From: Oncomelania hupensis
Lineage: Eukaryota; Mollusca; Gastropoda; Littorinimorpha; Pomatiopsidae
Assembly (NCBI GenBank): GCA_036898135.1
Contig: CM072522.1
Span: forward strand, 4,702,151-4,766,150
DNA: 64,000 bases
Reading direction: 5' to 3'
The notes under the pieces: generated by a model
The model's input: only the letters and a program-made list of their open reading frames with translations
What the model was told of the DNA's origin: nothing
Database searches by the model: none
Part shown: piece after piece, positions 821-64,000 of the stretch
Numbering within the stretch: position 1 is the stretch's first letter
Layout: each line of letters opens with the position of its first letter
Program-made: the position numbers and the translations under genes

Positions 821-1226
821 TGGCTCCTTGGTCTTGCCAGAAGTGACCTTGGAGCCGTTTCTGGTCAAGGTTACGACCAGAAACATATAAGTGGTCGCCC
901 TAGTTTAGGACCACATAATTTTTCCGGCAGGGATGCCCCGGCTAGTCCGATCAGGCTACCTGCCGAAGCCTTCCCTTCTGCTTCCTGCGGGATTCAGACC
1001 GGGTCGGGACTTCTGGCTAATGTTGGCTCCTTGGTCTTGCCAGAAGTGACCTTGGAGCCGTTTCTGGTCAAGGTTACGACCAGAAACATATAAGTGGTCG
1101 CCCTAGTTTAGGACCACATAATTTTTCCGGCAGGGATGCCCCGGCTAGTCCGATCAGGCTACCTGCCGAAGCCTTCCCTTCTGCTTCCTGCGGGATTCAG
1201 ACCGGGTCGGGACTTCTGGCTAATGT
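821..1226 (+). repeat. Two tandem copies of a 203-bp unit
   Basis: 821-1023 and 1024-1226 are near-identical head-to-tail copies, each starting TGGCTCCTTGGTCTTGCC and ending GACTTCTGGCTAATGT. They lie in the 5' untranslated part of the DIRS element. The identity implies a recent duplication. Confidence 0.92.
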
Positions 1227-2732: not shown

Positions 2733-3194
2733 GGAGTCGGAGCGGTCCAAGTCGGATGGTTTCGCCTTCTGGGCTCGGACCATACCTTCGGCCCCGCCTT
2801 TCTTGGCTGACAGGGGTTCGAGGTCGCTCGGTCCGTGGTCGCTCTTCTCGGGGTGTACGGGGTGGTATCCCCTCTTCCCGTGGCAGGGTTGAGGTGAGCC
2901 GTAGGCGTTTGCGCAGTGGCGCGTTTTCCTCCAATCCTCTCCCTGCCTTTCCACCCCTAGGTGTTCTATCCCTCCGGGCGGGTGGCTTGGCTCGCCAGTT
3001 TCATGCTTGGCTCGGCCTCCCCTCCGCCAGCGGTTGGGATTAAGAGGTGTTTCGGTCGGGGTTCGACCTTCATTGGGGTTCCTCTCGGCCCCCTTTCCGT
3101 CGCTCCCCGCCTTTGTTCCGCCCCCTGTCTCCTGTTGAGGCTCAGACGCTTCTGGACTCGGAGGTCATAGCTCTTCTCCTTTTGGTTTGTTTTG

Positions 3195-3560
3195 CAGTCC
3201 TTGGGTTTCACAAGGATTGTCCTAGAACTCGCTACTGTAGTTCGCGGACTCAGGGTGCGGTTCTCTGCTTATCTTGATGACCGGTTGGTCAAGGCTAGTT
3301 CTCACGTTCTCTGTCTGGTGCACACCAGGCTCGTTCTCCTTTAAACGCGGCGCTTGGGGTTCTCTGTGAACCCTCTCAAGTCCGTGTTGTCTCCATCTCC
3401 GGTTTTCAACTACCTGGGGTTGTCGTTCGTCACTCGCAATTGGTCGGTCCGCCCTTTAGCTCGTCGGGTGCAGAGGCTTCAGTCCCTTCTGCTACCTTTG
3501 GAGAGTCAGGTGGTCGTCTCAGCCAGATTTATGGCCTCCCCTTTGGGGTCGTTTTGAGTC
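3195..3560 (+). pseudogene. DIRS reverse transcriptase remnant
   Basis: A frame around 3265-3290 encodes AYLDDRLVKAS, matching the YxDD catalytic motif of DIRS reverse transcriptases. It stops after about 20 residues. The next frame (3354-3557) then encodes LGFSVNPLKSVLSPSP and YLGLSFVTRNWSVRP, the characteristic post-catalytic segment of DIRS polymerases. At least one frame shift separates the two, so the enzyme is not functional. Confidence 0.8.
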
Positions 3561-3679: not shown

Positions 3680-4152
3680 TCATGTCTTAGCCGATCTTCT
3701 GAGTCGCCCTCTTTGTGTGTCCACTCGGTATGGACCCTATCCCTCTCTGTTCTTCATCCGGTTTGGGCGGAGTGGCTTAAACCTCTGATCGATCTTTTTG
3801 CCACTCGTTACTCTTCCAGGCTCCCCTGTTTGTGTCGCCGGTCACAGACTGCCTGGCTTGGGCGGTGGGCGTGTTGTCCATTTCTTGGGAGGGGTTGGAG
3901 GCTTCAGCCTTTCCGCCATTCTCCCTCCTTCCTCAGGTTCTCAGGGAAGCCGAGGAGGAGTCTCCTGTCATTCTCGTGGCTCCCCTTTGGCCAGCTCAGC
4001 CCTGGTTCCCCGATTTCCTTCGTCTTCCCCAGGGGCGGTGCATTCCTCTCGCTCTCAGGGCGAGATCGCTTCTGCAGCCTCGTTCCGGGATTCCACACGG
4101 CGACCCAAGCGTTCTCCGTCTTCACGCTTGGCTGTTGTCCGGCCTTCTATAA
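3680..4152 (+). pseudogene. DIRS RNase H domain remnant
   Basis: Two frames together give LKPLIDLFATRYSSRLP and then SPVTDCLAWAVGVLSISW, followed by EASAFPPFSLLPQVL and VILVAPLWPAQPWFP. This order (DLFAT, SP..D.A, FPP, AP.WP.Q.W) is the signature of the RNase H and adjoining region of DIRS elements. The frame changes near 3825, so the copy is broken. The tyrosine recombinase normally found here or downstream is not seen. Confidence 0.8.
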
Positions 4153-4336
4153 GAGGTTTCTGAGCTTCAAGAGGCCTCGGAAGGTTCCAGCATCCTGTTT
4201 CCTTATCATACTCAACGGGATGGCTTCTTGGTTTCGATTCTGTGGTCGCGGCCCTTCAATCTTGGTCCTCTTCTTCAGCCTGTTCATGGTAAAGTTGTTT
4301 CAATAGAGTTGCTTCCCTCCGTCCTTTTCGTGCTAA

Positions 4337-4425
4337 TCTGCACTTGTGAGTCATGGTATAGTATGTGAAATTAATATTAAAATTTTTTCTCTAAATTTAT
4401 TATTAATAAACATACTTACCATGAC
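4337..4425 (+). repeat. DIRS internal complementary region
   Basis: 4340-4370 is the reverse complement of the left outer edge (about 272-305). 4381-4425 is the reverse complement of the right outer edge (about 4630-4680). Joining the complements of both ends back to back is the template arrangement used by DIRS elements to complete their ends through a circular intermediate. Confidence 0.85.
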
Positions 4426-4466
4426 TCACTTTAATGTCCCTCCCACCTCCCCGCAGTTCCAAATAA

Positions 4467-4638
4467 GGAATGGATATTCGGTCCGTTATCGTGAGCGCTT
4501 GGACGCGTGTTTAACACGAGACTCACGGGAAAGTGGTTTCAGGGGAAGCAACTCTATGACTGTTTTATCTTTTGTCAGCTTCCGTTAGAGAGGCACTCTC
4601 CTAGCAATGCCATAAACATTGCACTTGTGAGTCATGGT
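4467..4638 (-). repeat. Right inverted terminal repeat of the DIRS element
   Basis: GGAATGGATATTCGGTCCG through CTTGTGAGTCATGG is the reverse complement of 290-468 with only a few differences (for example ATGCCATAAAC here against GTTTATGGCGT on the left). Confidence 0.9.
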
Positions 4639-4680
4639 AAGTATGTTTATTAATAATAAATTTAGAGAAAATTTTTTAAT

Positions 4681-4892
4681 ATTTTTAGTAATTTTGCATT
4701 TTCAAACATTATCTTTTAAATACATTGAAATAATTGGGAATCAGAACAATCCAAGTCTGTTGGTCGGTCTGTCGCACACCATATCTCAACAGATTTTGAC
4801 CAAACTTCATAGAAACATTATCTAGTTTAGTGGCCAACCTCCACTTGCCACTATGTTCTACCATGTGGCTAAACAAATTTTTACTGTGTTTC
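4681..4892. other. AT-rich flank, generic dispersed repeat
   Basis: No gene is seen. 4755-4860 (GTTGGTCGGTCTGTCGCACA, then GACCAAACTTCATAGAAAC) resembles a common dispersed mollusc repeat that also seems to occur near 22310-22400. Confidence 0.4.
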
Positions 4893-5925
4893 TCAGTTCA
4901 GTTCAGTTCAGTGGGTAGATTACTGTCCCCGGACACATAAGCGTATAGGGGACTTTGATGGATGGTAGCCGTTGTAAGAAGAAGTCGAGTTGAAGAAGGT
5001 GAAACACGATGAAGGAAGAAGTCATGATCCAGGAATGGGAAATCACTTGAGGATGGAGCGCGCGAAGCTGCTGCGACAATCGGAAGAAGAAGTCGTGATG
5101 AAGCAGAAGTGCAGCTGAAGAAGGCATGCCAAAGGAGGAGAGCGCATGGGTGCGCAGCAAGATGCCGTAAGGGTGCCAAGCAGGACGCGGGGCCGGTCCT
5201 GAGGAAGAGTGCCGATGTGGCTCCTGAAGGAAGTGCTGATAAGGCCGCAAGAAGGTGGCCAAGCGGAGGCCGCGTGAGGGTGTATAGGCGAACGCAGGGC
5301 GCCTCTGGCGGTGAAACACCTGTAGTCCGGAGGTCGCCACGCTCCACAGGGAACCCCACGTCGCCCAATCGTAGAAAAAGGTGGTGGGCAGCCGAAGACC
5401 AGACGGGCGCAGACGAAGCGAGGAGGGCCCTTCCGCGTGAAGTGTACGCCGCCAGGCCAGGGGAGCCCAAAAAGAAGAAAATGAAGGTTGAAGTGTGAAG
5501 CGGAGTGTCATGTCGGAATCACCCACAGGCAGGCACGGCGGTTTCGACTTCTGGACTGCCACCCAAGGGATGGTGCGTCCTCCTCATCTCCGCACGCCGC
5601 TGTGTCCATGGGTCAGAACGCATCTTCTAGAAGTATCCCCGCAGGAAGCAAAGCCGCCCTGCCATTGGACTACCGTACGTCTCGACCTCAGAATGGCAAG
5701 AACTGCGGTAGGTCCTCTGACAAAGTGGAAAGCGCCCCTGTGCAGAGCAGGACTGCCACCCCTGCTCAGACGACGAACGCCGCTTCTCAAAAATGGATTG
5801 TCAATTGTAGTACACAGGAACTTCAAACTCATGGCCAGTTATTCAGTAGCTGTCCAGTTGTTAGTCAGTTCAGTCCATTGCTCCGAATTTATTGTTTTTG
5901 TTTAAAGCATTGTTTATCTCAATAA
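4893..5925. other. Unidentified GC-rich segment with a pentanucleotide edge
   Basis: The left edge is four copies of TTCAG (4893-4912), like a retroposon tail read on the minus strand. Base composition is much richer in G+C than the flanks. Both strands are open: minus 4903-5562 (219 codons) and plus 5109-5498 (129 codons, very basic, with a nuclear-signal-like PKKKKMKVE end). Plus ORFs continue at 5488-5925. No motif of a known family is recognised in any frame. It may be a retroposon body, a decayed Gag-like ORF or a host pseudogene. Confidence 0.35.
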
Positions 5926-6372
5926 TGACTGGAAACATATTATCTTAAAAATGACTGGAAACACATTGTTTGTCCCAATGACTGGACTGATTTTGATTAT
6001 TTTTACCATGCAAATACTTTACTACTGCTAAGCATTAATGTTATTCATATTTGCACTTTCTCTTTCAAGGTCACTGTGGTTCATTATTTTCTAAACATGT
6101 TTTGCAGTATATCAAAATTGACTGAACCAATTTAAATTATTTGTGGCTTGCAGATGGTTCAGATAGTGGCCCATCATTACCTGTTTTCAGTTTACTTAAT
6201 AAACATATACTAGTGTTCTAAATGCTATTCCTAAATCAGACTCAAACTCAAAAGCACGGCAGTCTGTAACCAAAATACATGCTTGCATTTTACAGACACT
6301 CGTACACAAACACATTCATCACTCAAACATGTAATGTAAAAGGCATCACTATTACAAGAGAAATATATGTGC
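5926..6372. other. AT-rich spacer with a repeat fragment
   Basis: No coding signal. 5923-5995 repeats ATGACTGGA three times. 6285-6360 (CATTCATCACTCAAACATG) is a diverged copy of the repeat seen at about 18235-18300 and 25235-25270. Confidence 0.5.
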
Positions 6373-7548
6373 TGTGACGTGGGGTTTTATTGTTGCTGGG
6401 CTCTGCACAATGGAATGCTGTAACCCTATCTTATTCTATGGGGACCGCTAGTGAGTCACCCTGTGAATTACTTTAATACATTTATTAGTTTAGCTCGGTC
6501 TGTGTTAAGGCTGGGGTACAGAGATAGATATAAATATGGTAAAAAATCACTGTCACACTAGCTTTCACACGGCTATGAATCATAGTAGTCCAGCCACTTA
6601 ATAACAGTCAAAATCACACATTTATTTCCTCTACTCTATACACGATCTTCGAAGTACGAAACTAACTTAAAAGTTCAATGGTCAAGGCGAATGGTTCACT
6701 CGCTGATAATCTAGACAGCTACTTTTTCTTCATCGGGCACTGGCTACTAGCGTTCATGAAGAGTGGACTACTGTGGTCCGTTGGATACCGTTTTAGTGCA
6801 CTGTTTCCTGGGCACTTAACTGATTGTTTTCATGGTTGAAGCGCTGCGTTGAGGTAGCTTCTACAACACTCTGTGTTGTTGTTGCTTGTGTTCGACGGGT
6901 GGGCTATCTGCGCTCAATGCTGTAGATGCCTCGGCAGCCAACTCGAATCGTAGATTAGGTTCTATTCTTTGCTGAGTTGGGCTCACAATATCCCGCCTGC
7001 TCGTCTGTAACATATGAGACGAAATTCTGCACAACCCTGAATAATAGGTCTGTGCAGAGCGTCTCACTGAAAGCCAAAGTAGCCCTCAGTGATAGCTCCA
7101 CATCTCTGTACATAAGCGATGAACATTCTGCTAAGTCGGTGGTCCACTGGAATCTCCACTCAAATTTCCTGTACATACATAATTATAAATCGTGGCTAAC
7201 TATACACATAAAGAATTAATATTATAAACATTCACTGGTATAGCCACTGGTCTGCAAGCATACATATAGGTTAAACAACAGGCCAGTTGCTCCTTTGGAG
7301 ACGCAAGGAAAAAAGTTCTTGAAAGTAGGCCGGTTCTTAAAGAGAGGTCCTTTGCGTCTGTGGTGGGTTCCACATCTCATGTGGAACCTAGCGCACACCC
7401 GTAAATGGACACTGCTATGAATAAAATGACGCAGATCTTGGAAACATTGTGCAGATGGATGGATGCTCTAGAAAAAATGCTCACGTTGTTTGCTCAAAAG
7501 GGGGGTTCTCCAGCCCCACCGATTACACTGGAGAACGTGGCGACGGGC

Positions 7549-34284: not shown

Positions 34285-36366
34285 ACATATATTCATGCAA
34301 AAGAAAATACAAACAGGGATACTGCAAATACGATGAATCAATTTTAATGAAGGAAAACATGAATTGAGCCTTACATTCAAAGCGCATTTCACTGAATATC
34401 GTAATTGCTGGGTCTAGGATTGCTCCGGCCAAATAGGGAGTAGTCCGCTGGACCTAGGGATCCCATGTCAACCTGAGAACATTCTGATGACAAGGAAGAG
34501 CTCTGCCAGGGTGGCATGGGAGACTGTCGGGATTCCCCAGACATATGACGCTGTGGATTTGTTTGACTCTGATAGTGAGCATTAGGAAGGTAGTGGGATG
34601 GTGATGGATATGATGATGACATGGAACTGCTTACGGTTGATGGAACTGGGGTATGATGGGAAGACAGGAAAGACTGTCCAGATTGCCCAGAGAAATGTGC
34701 CTGTTGAGTTTGTTGAGCATGAAGGTGTTTCAATAGCTGTAGTGTTTGGATCTGGAACTCCTGGAATAGATTCTCATCAAGAGTTTCTATCCTCGGCATG
34801 ATGGAGTGGAAAAAACCCATCCGTGAAGATTCAGGTTTCCTCTCAATTTTTTTTCTCAACAAGGACAGAATTTGATCTTCGTTGTCATCAACTTTCTGCT
34901 TCTTCTTTTGTTTTCTTCCCCCTTGCTCACTTTCTGTTCTTTTCTCCGCAACAGCAACTGCTTGCTCTGGATCATCGACCCCATCACTCTCATTCACAAT
35001 GTCAGCCTCTTCTATAGCAGTTTGTAAAATGTCGGCTTCCGTGTCAGTTTCCTCGTCACTCGCCTGCGGCAGGTTTCCCTTTGAATTCCTAATTTTCTTG
35101 ACAGGAATGAGAAATTCCATTTCTTTTATAAACTTCCATGGTTTGGTGTTGTCTGCTCCACTGCCCGATTTGTTCTTTGTCCTTGTCCTCAGCAGAGCGT
35201 TGTTGTGACAGCGCATGAGGGATTCCCATGTCTCCTTGGGAGTAGTTCCTGAAGAAAGAAAACAAAAGATTGAAAAATTGATGAATCATGACAAATTGTG
35301 AAGGACATTTATGCTTTTCTATTATAACAATGATAAGAAGAAGAAAAGGGGATAAAGATTGATATTGTTGAAGCTCGAGCTGTAATAAGTGTATTTTTAT
35401 TTCTGCTTTTTTTTCTTCAGATATCTGGCAACAGGAGCCTCATTCTCCTCTATGAGCGTTCCATTTCATATGTCCCGACGATCCATCAGCAGACATATTT
35501 TCAAGACGTGTCAAGTCCTGTGGGACGTTCTGCAACCACTCGAGTTGAAACTACCAACAGAAGATCAATGGATCCAGATAGCTAAACGTTTTGGTGATTT
35601 GTGGGATTATCCTTTCGCTGTCGGAGCCATAGATGGCAAACACATTGCTCTTGAGAATCCATCCAACAGCGGATCTATGTACTATTGCTACAAAGGATTT
35701 CCCAGTATAGTGCTCATGGCAGTGAGTGACGCGGATTCATGCTTCATTCTTGTAGACTGCGGTCAGTATGGCAGAATTAGTGACGCCGGAGTGTTCAAGA
35801 CATCCCAAATATCGAAGTTGCTGGCTCAAGGAAAACTCAATATCCCAAAAGCAGCGTTCAAGGTGGGAACCACAGAAACAACCATTCCATTCATGATTGT
35901 AGGAGACGAGGCATTTCCTCTGAAACCGTATTTAATGAAGCCATATGCAGCAAAGACTCTGGATCAGGAAAAGAGGATTTACAATTACCGGCATTCACGG
36001 GCACGACGAACGGTTGAATGCGCCTTCGGCATCCTTGCAAAGAAATTTGAAATATTTCAAAGGCCAATGAGAGTTGAACCTGACCAAGCGATCTTGTTGA
36101 CGAATGCTGCCGTGGTACTACACAATTTCATCCGCCGGCGCGACGGAAGAATCATTGACAGGACTTCTGACGTGACCTACGAGGTGGTGGAGGGAGAAGG
36201 CAGAGGCATGCTTCCCCTGGAAGTTTCCACCCATGAAGGACGACCTATTGCTGAAGCAATGGCCGTACGGGACAGTGTAAAGACATTTTTCAATGACCCG
36301 CAGGGAAGAGTTCATTGGCAACACGAACGTGTATTCCGAAATGTCATTGCAAATGAGATTGATTGA
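33720..36366 (+). CDS. Harbinger (PIF) DDE transposase, two exons, 415 aa
   Basis: Exon 1 is 33720-34021 and ends CTCAG before a GTAGGT donor. Exon 2 is 35421-36366 after a TTTTTTCTTCAG acceptor. The joint falls inside an Arg codon and restores the family phrase ITLR/YLATG. Exon 1 holds the N-terminal region (ESRGEFHRTFRRLLESLDEE, RMSYNTYNTLKALV). Exon 2 holds the DDE_4 core: AVGAIDGKHIAL (first Asp), LVDCGQYGRISDAGVF (second), IVGDEAFPLKPYLMKPY, and NYRHSRARRTVECAFGIL (catalytic Glu in VECAFG). Length is normal for HARBI1-like transposases and no stop interrupts it. It would cut and paste the element in the nucleus together with the MADF partner. The 1.4-kb intron contains most of that partner's coding sequence on the opposite strand. 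Confidence 0.9.
34235..34283 (+). repeat. CA microsatellite in the Harbinger transposase intron
   Basis: About 24 CA dinucleotides with one CG interruption. ORFs on the other strand are poly-Cys/Val artefacts. Confidence 0.95.
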
Positions 36367-48955: not shown

Positions 48956-50783
<1,828 letters not shown>

Positions 50784-52543: not shown

Positions 52544-54395
52544 TCTCTCCAAAAACTCTTCAACATCTTCCTAGAGCGCATCATGTCAGATGCCCTTGCA
52601 GATCACGAAGGCACCATCAGCTTAGGGGGTAGAGTAATCTCCAACTGTTTTGCGGATGACATTGATGGCTTGGCTGGAAAGGTACAAGAACTTGAACATC
52701 TGGTACAAAGGCTTGACACCACCTCCAGAGGCTATGGAATGGAAATAAGTGCAGAAAAGACCAAAATGATGACCAACCATGGCATCAATATGGACATCAA
52801 AGTCCAAAGTCAACCACAGTGCATAACTTCAAATATTTAGGAGCCATTGTTTCAGACAATGGGTCCCAATAGGAAGTCCACTCCTGGATCGCACAAGCAA
52901 CTGCTGCCCTGACAAGGTTGAAGCCCATTTTGAAAGACAGGACCATCAGTCTACATTTCAAGGTAAGGCTGCTGCGCTCCCTTGTCATCCCCATCTTCCT
53001 ATACGCTTGCAAAACATGGATCCTCACAGCAGATCTACAACGAATACAAAGCATGAAAAAAATGACCGAAAAAGAGGTGGGAGGACAACAGTCGAGAATG
53101 GACTGGTTTGAACCTGAGCGAAACAATCAGGGTTGCTGAGGACAGGGAAAGATGAAGTACGCTGGTTAAACGATCACCTGCGGTGCCCATACAACCTCCG
53201 AATTATGGGGATAGGATAGGATAGGAGATGAGGTGCTACAGAAGACTTCTAGGCATTTCCTATACCCAGCACGTCACCAACAATGGTCCAACAGACAATC
53301 ACACAAGCAATTGGACAACACGATGACATGCTCACAGTGGTGAAGAAACGGAAACTCTGATGGTATGGCCACGTCACCACAGCATCAGGGCTTGCAAAGA
53401 TAATCCTGAAAGGCACGGTGCAAGGAGGCAGAAGAAGAAAAGATCAGAAAAAGAGGTGGGAGGACAACATTCAACTGGCTTGACACTGAGCGAAGCCATG
53501 AGGGTTGCTGAGGACAGAGAGAGATGGAGTACGCTGGTTAAACAATCATCTGTGGTGCCCCAACGACCTTCGATTTACGGAATAGGATCGGATATGAGAA
53601 GAACAAGAACAAACAGCTGGCTCAGAGGCTTGAGACCTTTGGAATGGAAGTAAGTTCAGAGGTGACCAAAATGATGACAAATAACACTAGTGGGGTCAAC
53701 AGACTTCAAAGTCCCTGAACATAGCTTCAAATATTTAGGAGTGGTATCAGGCATTGTTTCCCGACAAGAAGTCCTTTCCAAGATCGGAAATTTGGAAAAA
53801 GAGGACCATCAGTCTACATTCCCAAGATAAGACTGCTGCGTTCCCTTGCACATGCAACTGCAGCCCTGACAAGGTTGAAGCATATTTGGAAAGGCAGAAC
53901 CATCAGTCTGCAATTCCAAGGTAAGGCTGCTGCGCTCCCTTGTCATCTCCATCTTCCTATACGCTTGCAAAACATTGACCCTTACAGCAGACCTACAACT
54001 AAGAATACAAAGCATGGAGATGAAGTGCTACAGAGTACTTCTGGGCATTTCCTATGGCCAAGCACATCACCAATGATGAAGTCCGACAGACCATCACACA
54101 AGCCATTGGACAGCACGATGTTCACAGTGTTGAAGAAACAGAAACTCCGATGGTATGGCCATGTCACCAGAGAATCAGGCCTTGCAAAGACCATCATGCA
54201 AGGCGCAGTGCAAGGAGATAGAATAGAGGAGACAGTAAAAGAGATGGGAGGACAATATTTGAGAATGGACTGGTTTGACACTGAGCGATGCCCTGAGGGT
54301 TGACGAGGACAGAGAAAGATGGAGTACGCTGATTAAACGAACATCATTGGTGCCACAACGACCTTCTAGTTATGGGATAGGATAGATAGGATAGA
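52544..54395 (+). pseudogene. RTE-like LINE copies, three partial 3' ends in tandem
   Basis: 52544-53225: reverse transcriptase from LFNIFLERIMSDALADHEGT (in part frame-shifted) through NCFADDIDGLAGKVQELEHL, MEISAEKTKMMTN, ILKDRTISLHFKVRLLRSLV and a GGATA tail. 53226 to about 53590: a second partial 3' end (CTACAGAAGACTTCTAGGC ... GAGTACGCTGGTTAAAC). About 53591-54395: a third, again from the reverse transcriptase to RWYGHVTRESGLAKTIMQG and a GGATA tail. All are riddled with stops. Confidence 0.8.
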
Positions 54396-55332
54396 CATTT
54401 AACCCATAGTATGCAACAGTGGTTTATTTTATAATACATGAGCATCAAGGGTTATGTAAAGGGCAAGATCACTAAAGGTCGGTCATCCCAAAGTTACTTT
54501 TGGGGGGCATAATGCTTTTGCTGTATCTGATCGTACGTGAGTGTATTTGGAGCCAGAGGTCAAGGTTACTTCAAGGTCAAGATCAAAGTCTGTATTACTT
54601 TGAATTTTATTGCCACCATTTTATTTAGTTTTTTTTTTAAGTACTAATTTTCATGGTAAATCTTGCAGAGATAGCAATAATGGGCTCTGAGCGCCAAAGC
54701 TCATAGAGTTACTAAAGGAGGCCTTTTATTGCAATTTATGGCTGTTTTATGAGCTTTTTAAAAAGCGCTCCAAAGCACTCTGGGAATCCGCAATTTGCTA
54801 AATATAATACATATTCGTATATCTTGCGTCTTTGGTTAAAACAAAAAAAAATTACAACCCTTCTTCAATTATTTGAGGCATATCAGACTGATATCAAACA
54901 CTTCAAAAAAAGCATTCATTCCCTGCACAACACCAAGCACGCACAAGCCCACATTAAGCTGGGTTTGTAGTAGGCCCTAAATAAAATACTGTATGCGTTT
55001 ACTATTTTCTCACGCACTAAGCTAGCCTTGACACACAAAGTATTTAACAGTATTTGTGAGCATGCGCACTGCTGTTGCACTATAAATAATCAGTATATAC
55101 ATTCACCCAGACACATAAACACATATTTCCTCATGCACCCAGGTAACCTTGAAATGCATTCTTGGTGATGCACTCTCCTGTAGCACTATAAATAATCTGT
55201 TTTTCTTTTTATTATCTATACATTATTTACCTAAACACACAAACACAGGATAGTGGTATTGTCTATTTTAGTTCCAACACGGTAATTGTAATCCTAGCCC
55301 TATTTGTTAGTCCGTATATTTATCGCCTATTG
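54396..55332. other. Repeat-bearing spacer before the polB element
   Basis: 54440-54700 is the AGGTCA-rich dispersed repeat. 54850-54900 (AAAAATTACAACCCTTCTTC) is repeated in diverged form at 55672-55710, hinting that the polB element or its terminal repeats may begin in this region. No gene. Confidence 0.45.
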
Positions 55333-55675
55333 TGTGCAGGTGGTTGGAATGTAAATATAATATATTCTTTTTTTAAACATCGAAATAAATGTAAATGTAT
55401 AAACTATTTGCGCACAAACACACTCGCACACACATACAAACACACATGCAAGTAAATTAATTTTACAACATGAAAAAAAATTAAGGCACAACACAGAATC
55501 GAACCCACGCCTTCTCAATTACAAGTCCGCTGTACTACCACGCAGCCATTAACGCTTGATGTTTGTACTGCGAAAATTAATCTATATAATCCCAAACAAC
55601 TATACCAGACCAATTGTGCTACATGCCGCAGGTGGTTGGAATGTAAATATAATATATTCTTTTTAAACATCGAAA
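55333..55675 (+). repeat. Direct repeat of about 50 bp flanking a tRNA-like segment
   Basis: CAGGTGGTTGGAATGTAAAT through AAACATCGAAA occurs at 55333-55386 and 55627-55675 with few changes, about 290 bp apart. Between them, the minus strand at 55493-55560 reads GGCTGCGTGGTAGTACAGCG and GTGGGTTCGATTC, i.e. A- and B-box-like elements. The anticodon stem does not pair well, so it is a tRNA-derived remnant and not a tRNA gene. CATGCAAGTAAATTAATTTT at 55446 recurs at 56747. Confidence 0.6.
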
Positions 55676-55840
55676 AAATTACACCCTTCTTTAATCATTT
55701 TAGGCGAAATCACAGTATTCAAACACGAAGGGTTTTGTTGCAATCCTGCCACGTCACGATTGTGCCGCCATGTTAACATTGACAGCGCAAAGGTGACATT
55801 GCAGTGAGGTGTGAAGAACCGCACGGAGTGTATTTATGAC

Positions 55841-56689
55841 ATGTCTTATTCTCGTGTGATTGAAAACGTTGACGAAAGCATTAATATATTACAAGACATT
55901 GTTGTTGATTTAACATTATCAGACGATGAAAACGAAGACAGCGCAAACAGTGGTTGTGTTACTGTTAAACGAGAACTTGAAGTTGAAGCGACTGATGCCA
56001 TCAGTGATGAATGTGAATTAGAAAAAATAAACAATATTGATGCCAACATTGAGTATTACTCTAAACACCTTAAGTATTACCAAAACTTAAGAAAAACATA
56101 TAGAGAAAAGGGATACTTAGCTGCTGTTGGGTTTGAAACAACAGAACAAAAGAAACTACCAAAGAAGCCAAAAGAAGTACAATTTGTTCAATCTACAAAA
56201 CCAGCCGCAAAACGAAAAGTGTCTGAAAAAGAGAAAGAAAAAGATATTACTAAATTGAGAGGTCGCGAGCTGCTTGACAGATTGGAAAAACATGTTGTAA
56301 AAATAATTACCCCTGGTGTAAAACGGCCTGAAATTCCCGAGTTTGACGAAAATGAACAAAATGTAGACAAGATTGAAAATATATTAATAAATGGTGAAAA
56401 ATGTATTAAGCATAAACATTCTATGATTTTATCTGACGCTGTTAAATTTGGGTTGTGGATTGAAAAGTACCAAGAGTTAGACAAACAAACATTTGTAACC
56501 TTTGTTCAAAACACGTTAACCTTTAGTGTAAGTTATGCATATGGACTAAAACGAGTGGCTTATGTGTTTTCAACGTATAAAAAACTGCAAAGGTTAAACA
56601 TAAGTTTGGACATTGCTATGAAAATAGCTGAAAGAATAAAAAAGGCTATGCAGTCTTATCCAGCACGAGCAAGAACTTGGATGAAATAA
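55841..56689 (+). CDS. polB-element gene 1, unknown function, 282 aa
   Basis: The natural start is ATG at 55841 (MSYSRVIENVDESINIL). The frame is open 30 nt further upstream only through a GTG. It has an acidic N-terminus (LTLSDDENEDSA), a helical middle with LRKTYREKGYLAAVGFE, a lysine-rich stretch (KRKVSEKEKEKDITKLRGRE) and a C-terminal helical domain: LSDAVKFGLWIEKYQEL, FVTFVQNTLTFSVSYAYGLK, then RLNISLDIAMKIAERIKKAM. The KFG.W ... SYA..L pattern reminds me of an unnamed protein seen beside similar polymerases in cnidarian genomes. This is memory only. Nuclear, DNA-associated roles are plausible from charge but unproven. Confidence 0.7.
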   Translation: MSYSRVIENVDESINILQDIVVDLTLSDDENEDSANSGCVTVKRELEVEATDAISDECELEKINNIDANIEYYSKHLKYYQNLRKTYREKGYLAAVGFETTEQKKLPKKPKEVQFVQSTKPAAKRKVSEKEKEKDITKLRGRELLDRLEKHVVKIITPGVKRPEIPEFDENEQNVDKIENILINGEKCIKHKHSMILSDAVKFGLWIEKYQELDKQTFVTFVQNTLTFSVSYAYGLKRVAYVFSTYKKLQRLNISLDIAMKIAERIKKAMQSYPARARTWMK

Positions 56690-57152
56690 GGTGAGTTTTT
56701 GTTTTTATGCAATCGCCGGCAATGGGATTAAAGGGGAAGCTTTACACATGCAAGTAAATTAATTTTATTGTCGCTGTGCCTGACTGTCTGTCTGTCCGTC
56801 TTTCCGTCTTTCTCTCGTCAATTGTCACCCCCAACCAGCCCATGGGTTTCCCCTTAATAGGTTGCAAGCAGAGTTGACAGCACAGTCATTTTTCTCTGCC
56901 CCAATGGTTTATTGATTGAAAGGCCGCGTTAATGTTTACACAGTGGTAAAGCGTGTAGTGACGGCAATGCAGCGAGGCATGACAAGTTTGAGATATAAAA
57001 ACGCTATTACGCATTCATAAATAAAGTTGCGGTTGCTTCCCTTTGACTGTATTGGTCCGCGCGAATGAAATTCCCTAGTTAATTGTTTGTTTTTTTTAAA
57101 GTCAGTTTTTAATTAATTATTTTTTAATTTAAAGTTTTGCGTCAGTATAAAA
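56690..57152. promoter_or_regulatory. Intergenic region and likely polymerase promoter
   Basis: 463 bp without an ORF. It holds a repeat of the CATGCAAGTAAATTAATTTT sequence (about 56747). The last 75 bp are very A/T-rich and end CAGTATAAAAATG, placing a TATA-like box only a few bases from the start codon, so transcription must start very close to or within the ORF, or the box is coincidental. Confidence 0.45.
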
Positions 57153-60100
57153 ATGACGGACACAAAAAGTCTTTCACAATCTCCTTTGTTTAAAGACATC
57201 TTTCAAACTTTACAAATCCCTATTCTTGACAGTCAAAATGTTATTAAATCTGTTTATAATAATTACGAATTTGTACTTAACAATTTTACTTTCAAATCCC
57301 CTGTTAAAATACGCATTCACGCTCAAATAACTTTTATTAAACCCGGCAGTATTGATGAAACGATGACTGTGTGGATTTCTTCAAGTCAAATTGAAGTGTT
57401 AAAATCTTCAGACCTAGACAATGCTTATAACAACATCTTAATCAATCAGTTACAAGACAGTATTGAGCCTGCAACTATGAAAGGGTCCGGATGGGCAGAA
57501 GGAAATTTAGAATCATTAGAACTGAACATTGCAAAGTATAATCCAATCAAAGGAAAATCTTATATCCCTCTTCCCAAAGAAATTCTTGACAAAAAGGCTG
57601 TATTGAATATTAAGAACACTGACGACAAATGTTTTTGGCGCTATACAAAGATAAAGTAACGAACTTAAATCTTAAAGACATTAATTTCCCTGTTAGCCTT
57701 GACGCCATTGACAAATTTGAATCCCAGAACTCTCCTATAACAGTCAATGTATATGTTTGGGACCCTGAATCAAAACTTATGCCTTTACGAATCTCTCCTA
57801 ATGCCCCATCGTTTTCAGACCTCAATCACCACGTCGATCTTTTACTAATAACAGACCCGCAAGATCCTAGCATGCAACATTATACACTGATACGAAACAT
57901 ATCTAGATTATTAGGACACACTTCAAAACATCATTGCAAACAATATTTGTGCAGGCGCTGTTTAACTAGAGTCTCTAATCTCCAAGTGGCTGACAAGCAC
58001 AGTAAAATATGCAAAACCATGACAGATAATCAAACCCGCCTTGTGTTACCAAAGCCAGGTTCTCAAGTATATTTTAAAAACATCAACAAACAATTCAAAC
58101 AGCCTTATATAGTTTATGCCGACTTCGAATCATTGATTTTAAAATACCAAGGCCCACAAGGATTTTGTACGCCTAATTCATTCCTTACACACCTTCACGA
58201 AGTCTGCAGTTTCGGGTATGTAGTTGTTAGAGCCGACGGACAACATACAGAGCCGGTAATTTACAGAGGGCCTGACGCAGCTCGAAAGTTCTTAGATGAG
58301 ATGAACAAAATATACAAATTGTGTTTACTGCAGCTAGATAATCCAGCGCCCATGATATTTACTGAATCTGACTCCCATAATTTTAAAGCAGCTACACATT
58401 GCCACATTTGTAATAAAGAGTTTGACCCGAAGGACGCAAAGACCCAAAGGGTGAGAGATCATTGTCACATAACAGGGGCATTTAGAGGTGCAGCTCATCA
58501 GAAATGCAACTTGGAATATGGAATCAAACATTTCTCTCTCCCTATTTTCATTCACAATCTTCGAAATTACGACTCCCATTTAATCATGCAGGCAGTGACG
58601 AAAGCATACAAAGTGTCATGTATTGCCGAGACAGAAGAAAAATATAAAACTTTCACTCTGAATAAATTAAAGTTTTATGACAGCTTTCAACATTTGTCTT
58701 CCAGTTTAGAAACACTAGCTAAGAACTTACCCAGCTATCCTATTACTAGTAATTATTTTCCAGACGTTACACTTATTCGGAAAGGTGTGTATCCTTATGA
58801 ATACATGGATTCTTGGGAAGTGTTTGAAGAACTAGAATTGCCACCTAAAGAGAACTTCTATTCTTCACTCAATAAAAGTTTCATAACTGTTACCGATTAT
58901 GAACACGCCCAGAATGTCTGGAATGCACTCAGCTGTAAAAACCTTGGTGACTACCACGACATATATTTGAAAGCCGACGTCTGTTTGTTGGCTGATGTGT
59001 TTGAAAAATACAGAGAAACGAGTTTACATCATTACTCCCTCGACCCTTCTCATTACATTTCTTCACCAGGAATGAGTTGGGATGCTTTCTTAACACTTAG
59101 TGGTTCTAAAATCGATCTCATAACTGACCAGGTAATGATGACAATGATTGAGTTAGGCATTCGTGGAGGAATAAGCGTGGCAGCTCATAATTATTGCAAA
59201 GCCAACAATAAATACCTGAAGCACTATGACCCCTCGCAGAAATCTAATTATATAATGTTTTTTGACGCCAACAATTTATACGGTTGGGCAATGAGTGAGC
59301 TTTTACCGGTTTCAGATTTCAAATTACTTGTTAATCCAAACCCCCCGCAAACTTTACTTGGTTAAACAGTATTTTAAATCACCCTAAAGATCATACTATA
59401 CGGCTTATTGTCGAAGTTGACCTAGAGTATCCCAATGCTTTACACGACCTACATAATGATTACCCATTAGCACCAGAAAGATTGCATGGTACAGACAAGC
59501 AACTTAAACTTATTCCCAACCTCTATAATAAATCTAATTACGTCTGCCACTACAGAAACCTGCAGTTCTACATCAGACACGGCATGAAGTGCACAGCGAT
59601 TCACAAGCTTTTATTCTTTAAACAAACGAATGTCTTGGCCGGGTACATCAATAAAAACACAGAGCTCAGAAAACAAGCGCAATCTACGTTTGAAAAAGAT
59701 TTCTTTAAGCTGCTGAATAACAGCTGTTTTGGTAAAACTATGGAGAACCCATACAAGCGAAAAGACGTCAGGCTAATTACATCACCCAATCAAGCAATTA
59801 AATTAACATCTAAACCTCAATACCTTGGTTACAAAGAGTTTCATGACTCCCTGTATGCAGTTACCATGAAAACCACGCAAGTTAATCTAGACAAACCAGT
59901 GTTTATGGGGATGACTATTCTTGACCTTTCTAAATTACTAATGTTCGAATTTTACTACGATTACTTTAAACCTAAATACCCGGAGGCCAGAGTTTTATAC
60001 ACAGACACAGACTCCCTTATACTAGACATCCCTACTGAAGACATTTATAAAGACTTAGAATCGGAACTACAACATTACGATACTAGTGACTACCCTGAAA

Positions 60101-60546
60101 CTCACCCTTTGTACAGCAAAGCAAACCAAAAGAAAATCGGTTTGATGAAAGATGAAATGAACGGGAAACTAATAGAAGAATACGCAGGACTGCGATCTAA
60201 GCAGTACAGTATTAAACACGAATCGGGGGAATCTTCAAAAGCAAAAGGCACCCAAAAAGCTGCAATAAAAAACAGAGATATCAGACACGAAAACTACCTG
60301 GAAGCCTTAGATGGAAAAGAAGTTAAACCATACCCTAACACAACTATAAAGTCTAAAAACCATATAGTGTCCACTGCTGTGACGACCAAAAAAACATTAT
60401 GCGCTAATGACACAAAGAGAATAAGAGTAACTAAGGAGTTCGCATACGCTCTAGGCCACTATAAATTACAGGTAGAAACTGCGACTACGACTACGACTGT
60501 GACTATGAGTAAGAAGGAGGGCCTGGAAGGCTTGAGTAAATGTTAA
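57153..60546 (+). CDS. polB: Protein-primed family B DNA polymerase (DNA_pol_B_2 type), two frame breaks
   Basis: It replicates the element, by family using a terminal protein as primer. Three ORFs follow each other. 57153-57659 is the N-terminal part, ending at IPLPKEILDKKAVLNIKN. 57629-59365 carries a zinc finger (HHCKQYLCRRC...HSKIC), ExoI YADFESLI, an endonuclease VII-like zinc motif (CHICNKEF ... VRDHCHITGAFRGAAHQKCN), ExoII HNLRNYDSHLI, ExoIII YLKADVCLLADVFEKY and polymerase motif A FFDANNLYGWAM. The frame open from about 59346 to 60546 carries motif B (NNSCFGKTMEN) and motif C (LYTDTDSLI). All exonuclease and polymerase catalytic residues are present. The frame changes at a T run (57632-57636) and a C run (59340-59347). 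Both sites are homopolymers, so assembly error and true decay are equally possible. Total length across frames is about 1,130 residues, normal for the family. Confidence 0.9.
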
Positions 60547-60626
60547 CTGTATTTATTCTGAAGCGCCAAGCTTTTTCTTCAAAGCATCTAGCTGCTCTTT
60601 CCTTCCCAGTAGTCTCCCTTCCTCTA
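60547..60626. terminator. Convergent gene junction
   Basis: 80 bp separate the plus-strand polymerase stop from the minus-strand stop at 60627. No canonical AATAAA is obvious on either strand within it. Confidence 0.3.
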
Positions 60627-61220
60627 TTAATTTTTTTTAATTTCTTCAACATTAACAGGTGCAGACCTAGATTTAGATTGTATGTCGTGCTTCAACTTTT
60701 TATATTCTTCAAAATCTCGCTGGATAATTACAAACTCTTGGTCTGTAATCTGAGTGTCTTCTAGAGCTTTTGAAATTATTAAGTTCATGCTAGTAAGTTT
60801 AGCTATCGCCAGGCTAGAAATGAGGTCGTGTTTTTCTAGTTTCTTAGATACTTTAGTATTAATTACGCCAAGTAAAACTGACATTACTGAAGATAATCCG
60901 GCAGCCACTCCTAATCCAATACTAATTGGTATACCAATTCCAGTCACCAATAATCCCACGCTGATAGCAGCTTCCGCTGCATTAATAACATTTAGACCAG
61001 TAGACACGTAATTTATTCCGCTATAAGCGCCGGAATACCTTCGTCTGCATCTAGAGTACTTTTGGATATCTGATTCAATTTGAGTCCTAACTTTTCTTAT
61101 TTCTTCCAACCTGAACGTTTGAACATTACTTAAGTCTAACGTTGGAGCACTGGGTTGCATTGGTTGTTCATCCACTAGGCCTACTTCTTCCACTATAGCA
61201 GGATACAATTTTGTCGTCAT
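60627..61220 (-). CDS. polB-element small protein with two-hydrophobic-segment core, 197 aa
   Basis: The N-terminus is acidic and Pro-rich (1-30). A helix follows (33-53) and then a basic patch KYSRCRRRYS (54-63). About 78-120 is strongly hydrophobic (AISVGLLVTGIGIPISIGLG, VAAGLSSVMSVLLGVI), enough for two membrane passes. The C-terminal half is helical: KKLEKHDLISSLAIAKLTSM, SKALEDTQITDQEFVIIQRD, FEEYKKLKHDIQSKSR. The layout (basic helix, double hydrophobic segment, KH..I..LA..KL, S.AL.D..I.D.EF) matches an unnamed family that I recall from cnidarian and mollusc genomes beside such polymerases. It superficially resembles SLATT-type effectors, but there is no evidence for that function. A virion membrane or scaffold protein is another option. 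Confidence 0.75.
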   Translation of the reverse strand: MTTKLYPAIVEEVGLVDEQPMQPSAPTLDLSNVQTFRLEEIRKVRTQIESDIQKYSRCRRRYSGAYSGINYVSTGLNVINAAEAAISVGLLVTGIGIPISIGLGVAAGLSSVMSVLLGVINTKVSKKLEKHDLISSLAIAKLTSMNLIISKALEDTQITDQEFVIIQRDFEEYKKLKHDIQSKSRSAPVNVEEIKKN

Positions 61221-61252
61221 ATTTTTAGTGTGAAAAAAAGGGTTAACAATAA

Positions 61253-62125
61253 TTAACTTGATTTTAGTTTATTAGCAAAATATTCTATTTGACTATCAGA
61301 AAATATCTGATCGCTGAAATAAAATGCTAACAGATCTACGTTGTCTAGGCTAATTTGCGCTATTCTGTCAATAGGATTTGGAACAGGGACAAAAGTTATC
61401 TTGGGTGATGAAGTAAATACGGAATACTGATCTTCGCTTTCTCTTTTCTTCATAAATACTGTAATTCGTCTGGGATTCTCATCTAAATCAGCCCAACTTA
61501 GAGACACTTGCGGAATTACATTAACATTTCTCTGCGTAGGCCTGTGAGCAATTATGTCCAGTGCTATCATGGCTGCACTACCTATCTGTAAAGGAGGCTG
61601 CAGAACAACTCTGACATTTTTCCCTGCGGTTTCACGCTTATGTAAAACATAGCTGCTTTTTTTGTAGGCTTTGACTTCTATGTTTTCTCGGTTGTTTTCA
61701 TCCGGCACTAGACTAACTAACATAGGCCCGGCGTTAATAATTTTCTTAAATTTATTGTCTGGTCCCATAAAAGTGTAAGGGCTTTCGCACTTGAATTTAA
61801 TAAGCCAATCTAATTCCGTGTCTACAGGTGTTAAAGACCAGATATTTTCTCGTTTAGTAATAGCATACTTAAAATCGGGATCTACTTTACCGGCATTAAA
61901 GTCCTTTAGCTGATCGATAGACGGTTTTTCTGGCGGTACTGGCGGCGGCACTTGCGGCACTTCAGGCACTGCCGGCACTAGCGCTCGTTTATAATATCCA
62001 TTTTGTGTAAATTCGAAACCGTAAATAGACCCAACAATAGCATTCGCATCAAAGTCAATTGTGTCTGCTAAGTCTTTCAGTTCAATGGTAGGACAGGTTA
62101 CTGGAATTTGAGGGCCGATTGACAT
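61253..62125 (-). CDS. polB-element proline-rich structural-type protein, 290 aa
   Basis: Starts MSIGPQIPVTCPTIELKD, an N-terminal domain to about residue 48. A Pro/Val linker follows at 49-68 (VPAVPEVPQVPPPVPPEKP), then a beta-rich remainder (YAITKRENIWSLTPVDTELD, VRVVLQPPLQIGSAAMIALD, RITVFMKKRESEDQYSVFT). No catalytic motif or membrane segment. It is placed between the hydrophobic protein and the capsid-like gene with 32- and 19-bp gaps, so the three are probably co-expressed. A coat-associated or fibre-like protein is my guess. The family is not recognised. Confidence 0.7.
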   Translation of the reverse strand: MSIGPQIPVTCPTIELKDLADTIDFDANAIVGSIYGFEFTQNGYYKRALVPAVPEVPQVPPPVPPEKPSIDQLKDFNAGKVDPDFKYAITKRENIWSLTPVDTELDWLIKFKCESPYTFMGPDNKFKKIINAGPMLVSLVPDENNRENIEVKAYKKSSYVLHKRETAGKNVRVVLQPPLQIGSAAMIALDIIAHRPTQRNVNVIPQVSLSWADLDENPRRITVFMKKRESEDQYSVFTSSPKITFVPVPNPIDRIAQISLDNVDLLAFYFSDQIFSDSQIEYFANKLKSS

Positions 62126-62144
62126 TGTATTTTAAAATTAAACT

Positions 62145-62843
62145 TTATTTTATCTCAAGAATAATTGTAAGATCTTCAAAGTCTACAATTTCGTTGTTTT
62201 GGTTAGTTATTTTGAAGCAGAAACTAGTATGATAGTCCTGACTTAAGGGGCGTTTTTGAGGCAGAAATTTTAATGAAACTGGATCGCAGTAAGATTCTCT
62301 CTGAGTTGAGATTATCCTTAGCAATGTACTAGGAGTTCCGTTTACTAAGTTTTCCGATGTCTTCAGTTGATGAAGGTGCACAAACAATCTATTATTAATT
62401 AACAAATTCATAGGTTTTGATCCAATAAATCTTATAGAACTGCCGACGGTGCTGGAGCTGTCAGATAAAGATAATTCATGGCCACGGAAACCTAATATTT
62501 CTGCCAGCTTTGGCGCAAGTGTAACGCTGGTAATGTCTTTATGCTGGTTTCTATGGAAAGTTAAAGTTACTATCAAGTTTGCAGGGTTCATTTTTGCTTC
62601 AATCGAATGAGGTTTAAACAATTCTTCAGTAAGTCTGCAGAAGTCATAATAGCCGGCATGAATAAAGTGCCTTTTTTTATTAATCATTATCCAGTTGTTG
62701 TTTAGATCATGACTAATATTTAACCATTTAACCGTGTAGAATATTTCGTGAAGGATTACGTTAAGGTCCCTGTTTTTGTTGTCAATAGGATGCTGAAGTT
62801 CAATGGGCACACCTGATTTTACGAATTCGAAAGTTACAAACAT
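62145..62843 (-). CDS. polB-element capsid-like (jelly-roll type) protein, 232 aa
   Basis: No signal peptide. Beta-strand-rich throughout. The C-terminal third has the order LAEILGFRGHELSL, NLLINNRLFVHLHQL, STLLRIISTQ and FCFKITNQNNEIVDFED followed by LTIILEIK. This LGF ... INN..FV...L ... LLRII ... (I/F)..ITN.N...VDF....I.LEI pattern is the one I associate with the C-terminus of Polinton/adintovirus capsid proteins. The protein is shorter than a double jelly-roll major capsid protein and closer to the minor (penton-like) one. The start at 62843 is set by the 20-bp divergent spacer. Confidence 0.65.
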   Translation of the reverse strand: MFVTFEFVKSGVPIELQHPIDNKNRDLNVILHEIFYTVKWLNISHDLNNNWIMINKKRHFIHAGYYDFCRLTEELFKPHSIEAKMNPANLIVTLTFHRNQHKDITSVTLAPKLAEILGFRGHELSLSDSSSTVGSSIRFIGSKPMNLLINNRLFVHLHQLKTSENLVNGTPSTLLRIISTQRESYCDPVSLKFLPQKRPLSQDYHTSFCFKITNQNNEIVDFEDLTIILEIK

Positions 62844-62863
62844 ATTTTTTTAATATAATAAAA
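62844..62863. promoter_or_regulatory. 20-bp divergent promoter gap
   Basis: Only ATTTTTTTAATATAATAAAA separates the start codons of the capsid-like gene (minus) and the next gene (plus). It is entirely A/T. Transcripts must begin at or very near both ATGs, or each gene uses a promoter inside the other. Confidence 0.6.
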
Positions 62864-64000
62864 ATGTACGCGCCTTATAAATATAACAAAGCTGCAAAGT
62901 ATACTACAGGGCCTTATTATTACGAAAAAGCAGTCGACCTAACCAAGCTGACAATAGCTGTGGCAGCCAACGTCCATTTCGAAACTATCCCCCATAATAT
63001 TTTTGATCATTACCTCAACCCAGACATTACGAGCGACTTTTTAGCTAACCAATGGCTAAACAACGGGGGTATGCAGTTCTTTCAGAATCAAATTAATTTT
63101 GCCGTGTCATGCGCTACAACTGGTTGCGGAGTTTCTTACGTTCATCACCTTAATCACCCAGATCCCATGTTGAAGTCTATTTATCTGTTCCATTTGTATT
63201 ATCAAGTGAGGCGGGTGTTGTCTGAACTTCAGGCTCCGTTACCTACTGACAAAAACTTTAATCCCTTTAACAACGGCTTTGACAAAAAAGCGTATCAAAG
63301 GTTGTGCAATGAATTCGGAATTGATACTAAAACAGACTTCAGACAAAAACTAGACCTCAATCATGGGATGGGAACTTTATTTAGATACGCTGTAGGTAAT
63401 TTATACACGGGGCCTTACGTACCTGGATTCACATCATTTAACCACAACAGCCAGGTTCCTTTACTGTATATCAGACAAAAACAAAGTGCAGCATACAGCA
63501 CTTTTATATTAGACACATCAAACGGATTTACCCAAAGTGGGGTGGAAAGGCTGAATGAATCTATTCGTACGTATGCGTGGTGCATTTTGGGGTCTCAAGC
63601 AGAAACACGAAGTAATATCATTGGGGAAGGAACTAGCTTCGATGCACAAAAGCAGTTTCTAGCCAACATAGAAGATTCTATTAATTCGGCAGTAGATTTG
63701 CCCGCGAGTATTAAAAGATATCAGGACACTTTAAAGTATGCTAGATCGAAAGTAGATTACGTAATAGGTTTAGGACTGTATATGTTGCCTTCAGACCTTC
63801 AGCTTAGGATAGGAACTATATCAAACTACAACAACAATATAGTGATTGCCGACCCTCAATTTCATATAGGCTACAATCCTACAATAAATACAGTGAACAC
63901 AGTGAATACATTGAATACGGTGAACACAGTGAATACGGCGAATACGGTATTTACTGCTAGGCCTAATAATGAACCTTTAAGTTCGCCACCACTTCCGAGC
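62864..64000 (+). CDS. polB-element large structural-type protein, N-terminal 379 residues, runs off the window
   Basis: Open from ATG 62864 (MYAPYKYNKAAKYTTGPYYY) to the last base with no stop. Recognisable blocks: KLTIAVAANVHFETIPHNIF, NNGGMQFFQNQINFAVSCA, HPDPMLKSIYLFHLYYQVRR, GFTQSGVERLNESIRTYAWC, GSQAETRSNIIGEGTSFDAQ, DYVIGLGLYMLPSDLQLRIG and NNNIVIADPQFHIGYNP. They are followed by a tandem NTV tripeptide repeat (INTVNTVNTLNTVNTVNTA) and a Pro-rich end. I recall close relatives as unnamed proteins in corals and sea anemones, always of unknown function. No enzymatic motif. Size and position fit a virion protein. It is not a canonical double jelly-roll capsid by eye. Confidence 0.8.
   Translation, partial: MYAPYKYNKAAKYTTGPYYYEKAVDLTKLTIAVAANVHFETIPHNIFDHYLNPDITSDFLANQWLNNGGMQFFQNQINFAVSCATTGCGVSYVHHLNHPDPMLKSIYLFHLYYQVRRVLSELQAPLPTDKNFNPFNNGFDKKAYQRLCNEFGIDTKTDFRQKLDLNHGMGTLFRYAVGNLYTGPYVPGFTSFNHNSQVPLLYIRQKQSAAYSTFILDTSNGFTQSGVERLNESIRTYAWCILGSQAETRSNIIGEGTSFDAQKQFLANIEDSINSAVDLPASIKRYQDTLKYARSKVDYVIGLGLYMLPSDLQLRIGTISNYNNNIVIADPQFHIGYNPTINTVNTVNTLNTVNTVNTANTVFTARPNNEPLSSPPLPS

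What the first reader, a model, noticed from the sequence alone, without database searches (positions are those of the whole stretch)
55333..64000. Candidate undescribed polB-carrying virus-like element
A compact cluster joins a protein-primed family B polymerase with five other genes. Only one of these (capsid-like, 62145-62843) resembles a Polinton or adintovirus product. Gene 1, the hydrophobic 197-aa protein, the proline-rich 290-aa protein and the 379+-residue protein match families I know only as unnamed companions of such polymerases in cnidarians and molluscs. No integrase, FtsK-type ATPase or adenain-like protease is seen in about 8.6 kb. The combination suggests a lineage distinct from standard Polintons.
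Basis: partly seen in the sequence, partly recalled or inferred. Interest (0 to 1): 0.9.

Follow-up and report, generated by a model that had tools for sequence, protein, structure and literature searches.

The report
Polinton element cut by window edge
The gene cluster is the left half of a virus-like jumping element of a well-known type (Polinton/Maverick) that sits in hundreds of young copies in this animal's genome; two of the three genes that seemed to be missing lie just past the edge of the window.

Summary
The genes are real, but the window stops inside the element. The next 7 kb of the chromosome encode an rve-type integrase, a Pox_A32-type ATPase and a candidate 425-aa capsid protein. 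The whole, 16,281 bp, is bounded by ~206-bp terminal inverted repeats (first 180 bp identical) and a 5-bp target-site duplication. By signature genes and ends it is a Polinton/Maverick. The finding's own refutation test is met for integrase and ATPase; no adenain-type protease was recognised, and the gene order differs from that published for vertebrate Mavericks. The small ORF at 57153 is the polymerase's N-terminal part; the polymerase is broken into three frames here. The family is young and large: one exact polymerase 24-mer occurs 341 times in the 1.45-Gb genome, and seven other copies are 96.5-98.2% identical over 3.0-3.5 kb. Six genes tested between copies, including the capsid candidate and ATPase, show dN/dS 0.08-0.20, so they stayed functional while the element spread. 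The hydrophobic 197-aa 'companion' also occurs in a different integrase-bearing Polinton-type contig. New member of a known kind, of modest interest.

The parts
54662..54666 (.). left copy of the 5-bp target-site duplication; the right copy is L028:6948-6952
   Evidence: by symmetric ends 5 bp; a 6-bp reading is possible here if one terminal base is given to the duplication
54667..54872 (+). left terminal inverted repeat; the right arm is L028:6744-6947 (C12:4772894-4773097)
   Evidence: 98.5% over 206 columns, first 180 bp identical
55811..56689 (+). gene 1, 292 aa (GTG start), unknown function
   Evidence: ORF; only chance-level family matches
57153..57659 (+). N-terminal part of PolB (terminal-protein / OTU-like region by position), a separate frame in this copy
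   Evidence: in-frame with the polymerase in 10 of 10 relatives that reach it; the domain names are by position and from the abstract of PMC11071308
57629..59365 (+). middle part of PolB with endonuclease-VII-like zinc domain and DANNLYGW motif
59482..60546 (+). C-terminal part of PolB with the YTDTDS motif, third frame
60627..61220 (-). 197-aa helical hydrophobic protein, probably membrane-active
   Evidence: relative in L012 (27.5%, E 1e-7); low-to-medium confidence model with long helices; dN/dS 0.11
61253..62125 (-). proline-rich 290-aa protein, unknown
   Evidence: conserved between copies, dN/dS 0.17; no family match
62145..62843 (-). 232-aa protein; minor-capsid role possible but not shown
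   Evidence: ORF; piece-wise conserved in an older copy; capsid nature not confirmed
62864..64000 (+). window part of a 420-aa protein that ends at L028:126; hydrophobic stretch near its end (by eye)
   Evidence: conserved in an older copy

Best explanation
This is one insertion (C12:4756817-4773097, 16,281 bp) of a young, high-copy Polinton/Maverick family. Inferred cycle: PolB, primed by its own terminal-protein part, copies the linear element from the inverted repeats; the A32-type ATPase would package it into a capsid made of the 425-aa protein and companions; the rve integrase inserts the DNA at new sites with a 5-bp duplication. Shown here: gene complement, ends, target-site duplications, copy number, and purifying selection on polymerase, integrase, ATPase, capsid candidate and two companions. 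Inferred: protein priming, the capsid protein's fold, and whether particles form. This copy's polymerase is broken. At the break between its middle and last part, the frame is open in 7 of 7 other copies examined; the whole fetched polymerase stretch is open in 4 of 7, two of these being identical.
For: rve integrase 40.3 bits against a cut-off of 32.6, Pox_A32 ATPase 53.6 against 22.8. Inverted repeats and duplication. Duplications with symmetric 5-bp ends in 4 of 4 copies with both ends in hand. 341 exact 24-mers, reversed control 0. 7 copies at 96.5-98.2% identity. Open polymerase frames in other copies. dN/dS 0.08-0.20 for six genes. Integrase 52% identical to that of L011, which also carries a related PolB.
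Against: No adenain-type protease recognised. The 425-aa protein has no family match and no meaningful PDB match, so the capsid is inferred. Duplication is 5 bp, not the 6 bp of vertebrate Mavericks, and gene order differs from theirs (PMC8097293, passages). No named Polinton sequence was available for the tree, and support there is low.
Confidence: 0.93

Rival explanations
1. A new lineage of PolB-carrying virus-like elements, distinct from Polintons, that lacks integrase, ATPase and protease.
For: No integrase, ATPase or protease in the window part; protease not recognised in the rest either; unusual gene order; unresolved tree.
Against: Integrase and ATPase are inside the same inverted repeats and recur at matching offsets in other copies: ATPase full-length in 11 of 16, integrase at 95% or more in 8 of 16.
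Confidence: 0.02
2. A Polinton-type chimera ('meldvirus'): Polinton PolB and integrase joined to a virion module related to large DNA viruses, like Meld23486 of PMC11071296. This is a sub-case of the best explanation rather than its opposite.
For: Strong Pox_A32 match of the ATPase, no recognised adenain, unrecognised capsid candidate; Foldseek matches of the 197-aa model led by iridovirus proteins.
Against: The 197-aa model has low-to-medium confidence and the matched helices superpose badly (rmsd up to 36 A in the listed rows). A32-type matches, weaker, also occur in other PolB contigs (L002, L010). No Meld sequence was available to compare.
Confidence: 0.25
3. A transposon whose virion genes are dead weight.
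For: No particle evidence here; in PMC4028283 (passage) nine Polintons without capsid genes also lacked protease and ATPase, so a purely transposon life exists.
Against: dN/dS of the 425-aa protein is 0.083 and of the ATPase 0.16 between copies.
Confidence: 0.2
4. An exogenous virus or contaminant contig.
For: None found.
Against: It lies in a 62.8-Mb contig with host flanks and a duplication; 32 distinct repeat ends each have different outside sequence; 341 dispersed occurrences.
Confidence: 0.01

Closest known systems
Polintons / Mavericks (polintoviruses)
   Same: PolB plus rve integrase, packaging ATPase, terminal inverted repeats beginning AG, target-site duplication, 15-20 kb size
   Different: No protease recognised (74% of Polintons have one, PMC4028283 passage); 5-bp rather than 6-bp duplication and another gene order than vertebrate Mavericks (PMC8097293 passages); capsid candidate not recognisable by sequence
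Meldvirus Meld23486 (PMC11071296, section 16 and figure 7 legend)
   Same: Polinton-type PolB and integrase; ATPase closest to poxvirus A32
   Different: Not comparable here: no sequence of it was available; capsid fold of the present element unknown
Contig L012 (CALZFZ010000048.1, in a Muriicola genome bin)
   Same: Related PolB, rve integrase, relative of the 197-aa protein
   Different: Other gene order; integrase fused to a phospholipase A2-like domain and only 23% identical; has an Adeno_PX protein and a sub-threshold Peptidase_C5 match
Contig L011 (JANQFH010000027.1, in an Oligoflexia genome bin)
   Same: Related PolB and an integrase 52% identical
   Different: Only 5.1 kb, so the rest cannot be compared

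Membership tests
[quoted passage not shown]
   family membership is shown, priming itself is inferred
Polinton/Maverick | retrovirus-type (rve) integrase in the same element | tested here: met
   L028:4133-5107, 40.3 bits against 32.6
Polinton/Maverick | packaging ATPase | tested here: met
   L028:2709-3320, Pox_A32 53.6 bits against 22.8
Polinton/Maverick | terminal inverted repeats and target-site duplication | tested here: met
   duplication 5 bp in 4 of 4 copies, while 6 bp is reported for vertebrate Mavericks
Polinton/Maverick | adenovirus-like protease (in most, not all) | tested here: not met
   no Peptidase_C5 match in 17 ORFs or pieces (8 at E up to 1, 9 at E up to 0.5); a diverged one could be missed; 74% of Polintons have it (PMC4028283 passage)
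[quoted passage not shown]
Adintovirus | PolB with OTU-like domain and Hexon recognisable by BLASTp among adintoviruses (PMC11071296, section 16) | not testable with these tools
   no adintovirus sequence was at hand
Adintovirus | integrase with C-terminal chromodomain | tested here: not met
   one search reports only rve for the integrase at E up to 0.5; a diverged chromodomain could be missed
Polinton-like viruses (PLV) | no rve integrase, as a rule (PMC4642659 passages) | tested here: not met
   rve integrase present
Bidnaviridae | parvovirus-type superfamily-3 helicase and parvovirus capsid beside PolB (PMC11071296, section 13) | tested here: not met
   no such Pfam match in the 17 ORFs or pieces

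The most novel reading that the evidence does not exclude
A recently amplifying endogenous animal virus of a chimeric Polinton type: PolB and rve integrase with a protease-free virion module (A32-type ATPase, 425-aa capsid protein, helical membrane-active protein) kept under purifying selection while more than 300 copies accumulated, so that particle formation is part of how it spreads.
Probability: 0.3. Interest if true: 0.5.

Novelty: new member of a known kind. Interest (0 to 1): 0.25.

Why it matters
It removes a false new lineage from the list. Beyond that, a young Polinton family with hundreds of copies and strong constraint on virion-type genes is a good place to ask whether animal Polintons still travel in particles. 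High Maverick content in a bivalve genome paper is already on record (1.69% and 1.93% in the two columns of a table in PMC8905726; column headings not seen), so copy number alone is not new.

Tried and rejected
Structure of the 379-residue window part of the 420-aa protein, single sequence: mean pLDDT 32.7, useless. Structure of the 197-aa protein with one relative: mean pLDDT 61, three long helices; Foldseek against viral models: 6 matches at E 0.001 or better, three of them invertebrate iridovirus proteins, with rmsd up to 36 A, a lead only. In viral contigs, four single-protein searches and one alignment search gave no relative (110), nor did a motif search; the PolB alignment gave two, L018 and L019. 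tblastn of the PolB middle part against phages and its PDB search: none. Single-sequence profile comparison of the element's other proteins with ORFs of ten of the loci: besides integrase, ATPase and the 197-aa protein nothing above 26% probability. Two copies 14.5 kb apart on C116 looked like a tandem array; the flanking pieces do not support one. Of five end pieces fetched, one held a repeat end. Of two sites chosen as possible older families, one matched and one (L106) did not. Host not identified. Literature: five answered searches; no listed title is about this family, but many papers and Repbase are not in the library, so I make no claim that it is unpublished. My note says 15 PolB relatives; the right count is 14 of 17.
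Full report
Observation. Of the eight ORFs or pieces in the window, only the polymerase is recognised by Pfam and PHROGs beyond chance level, through an endonuclease-VII-like zinc domain and a weak DNA-polymerase match. A degenerate pattern for its DANNLYGW motif matched 17 contigs of prokaryotic genome bins; 14 of 17, all contigs of 3.1-7.2 kb, encode a relative of the polymerase, and the three that do not lie on contigs of 40 kb to 1.7 Mb. In all 10 relatives whose contig reaches upstream, the counterpart of the ORF at 57153 lies in the same ORF as the start of the polymerase domain; so do L018 and L019. That ORF is therefore the polymerase's N-terminal part, and in the window's copy the polymerase lies in three frames.

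The window's edge is not the element's edge. The window is C12:4702151-4766150 of a 1.45-Gb genome. Of the 16 ORFs of at least 70 aa listed in the next 10 kb (L028) I take nine as the element's: 431 aa (100-1395, -), 425 aa (1428-2705, +), 203 aa (2709-3320, +), 142 aa (3684-4112, -), 324 aa (4133-5107, -), 140 aa (5111-5533, -), 175 aa (5570-6097, +), 148 aa (6015-6461, +), 78 aa (6495-6731, +). The 203-aa protein is a Pox_A32-type ATPase and the 324-aa protein an rve integrase, both above cut-off. Window 54667-54872 and L028 6744-6947 form an inverted repeat (98.5% over 206 columns), identical over the first 180 bp, flanked by the same 5 bases. The element measures 16,281 bp.

Copies. A 501-bp PolB piece gave 755 unscored candidates; the 40 scored are 99-100% identical. 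The repeat gave 931 candidates; the 40 scored are 98-100%. These listings show the best matches only. The firm number is 341 exact occurrences of a polymerase 24-mer, control 0. Seven other copies are 96.5-98.2% identical to the window's over 3.0-3.5 kb, and one is 97.1% identical over the right-hand 6.6 kb. One search examined 34 end loci; 33 gave rows starting at the first base of the repeat (32 distinct ends), L041 did not. The query itself began there, but the outside sequence differs at every end, which places the boundary. All four copies with both ends in hand have a duplication: CTTGC, ACTTC, TGAAC and GGGTG. Five bases with symmetric element ends fits all four; three of the four could also be read as 6 bp if one terminal base is given to the duplication, the fourth could not. 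Within-copy repeat differences are 0/180, 2/180, 4/180 and 2/98. Lengths are 16.3, 17.7, 15.6 and 24.1 kb (positions).

State of the genes. At the break between the middle and last polymerase parts of the window's copy, the frame is open in 7 of 7 other copies. The whole fetched polymerase stretch is open in 4 of 7 (L022-L025, the last two identical), broken elsewhere in 2 (L026, L027), and one (L021) lacks the upstream part. The first break, near 57640, was not examined in other copies. In core pieces fetched from 16 copies at fixed offsets, the 425-aa protein is full-length in 12, the ATPase in 11, the integrase at 95% or more in 8, and the cysteine-rich 142-aa ORF in 5. One piece (L066) matched nothing; some absences may come from the fixed offsets. 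In the three copies that have the integrase but not the 142-aa ORF, about 540 bases are missing.

Selection. Against the window's copy dN/dS is 0.16 (PolB last part), 0.11 (197-aa), 0.17 (290-aa; 6 of 6 copies each, one of the two identical copies dropped beforehand), 0.083 (425-aa; 16 of 17), 0.16 (ATPase; 14 of 17) and 0.20 (integrase; 10 of 17); copies with less than half the gene were dropped. The comparisons share one reference and skip stops and gaps, so they are not independent. Even so, ratios this low mean that these genes, including the virion-type ones, were maintained while the family spread. The 232-aa and 420-aa proteins were not tested between young copies. An older, decayed copy (L105, L107) keeps the same order of polymerase, 197-, 290-, 232-, 420-, 431- and 425-aa genes, with pieces at 36-89% identity, most between 59 and 76%; against it dN/dS is 0.06-0.36.

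Relatives. L012 carries PolB, an rve integrase fused to a phospholipase A2-like domain, an Adeno_PX protein, a sub-threshold Peptidase_C5 match and a relative of the 197-aa protein (27.5%, E 1e-7). L010 has a Peptidase_C5 above cut-off and L002 an ATPase above the Adeno_IVa2 cut-off. The element's integrase is 52% identical to that of L011 and 35% to that of L008. In a tree of 15 polymerase segments (L010 and L015 left out as fragments) the window falls near L005, L011 and L008 with 41-45% support, so the tree does not settle its place.

Mechanism. By comparison with published Polintons (passages of PMC4028283, PMC4642659, PMC8097293; abstract and outline of PMC11071308), PolB would carry its own priming protein and copy the linear element, and the integrase would insert it. 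The ATPase and capsid candidate imply packaging, which nothing here demonstrates.

Comparison. PMC4642659 (passages) calls DNA polymerase and rve integrase universal Polinton signatures; both are met. Against a standard Polinton stand the missing protease (present in 74%, PMC4028283 passage), the 5-bp duplication and a gene order unlike the two inward-facing modules of vertebrate Mavericks (PMC8097293 passages), and capsid proteins not recognisable by sequence. The A32-type ATPase and missing adenain recall Meld23486 of PMC11071296 (sections 13-16 and 25 and passages read), which could not be compared. Mavericks are reported in all molluscs analysed in PMC10294476 (passages) and are abundant in PMC8905726 (table passage); PMC3671162 and PMC6431247 were seen in passages. 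Whether the present host is a mollusc was not tested.

Verdict. The window's edge created the apparent absence. It is a new family of a known kind, with modest interest for its youth, its maintained virion-type genes and its small departures from the standard.

Noticed in passing
L028:3606-4144 (C12, right of the window): A stretch of about 540 bp with a cysteine-rich 142-aa ORF is present in the window's copy and in 5 of 16 other copies, and cleanly absent in three that have the integrase: variable cargo or a subfamily deletion.
   Followed up: partly
L012:912-2120: An rve integrase fused to a phospholipase A2-like domain in one ORF, in a Polinton-type contig.
   Followed up: no
L001-L006, L008-L015: Fourteen short contigs filed in bacterial or archaeal genome bins carry Polinton-type polymerases; they are probably misbinned eukaryotic or viral DNA.
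   Followed up: partly
window 54667-60000 and other copies: The distance from the left repeat to the PolB piece differs between copies (about 4.7, 5.3, 5.3 and 6.7 kb), and the region holds internal repeats such as the exact 37-bp pair at 55336 and 55628.
   Followed up: no
G000 C116:13000-47000: Two copies 14.5 kb apart that give the same alignment to the window over 3.5 kb, with part of a further copy in the other orientation nearby: duplication or assembly artefact.
   Followed up: partly
window 821-1226: Two exact tandem copies of a 203-bp unit in a G+C-richer part of the window.
   Followed up: no
window 52700-54380: Diverged direct repeats spaced about 790-960 bp; the ORFs look like LINE fragments by eye, not tested.
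   Followed up: no
window 49487-50113 and 35389-36366: ORFs that look by eye like Tc1/mariner and Harbinger transposases; no family search was run on them.
   Followed up: no
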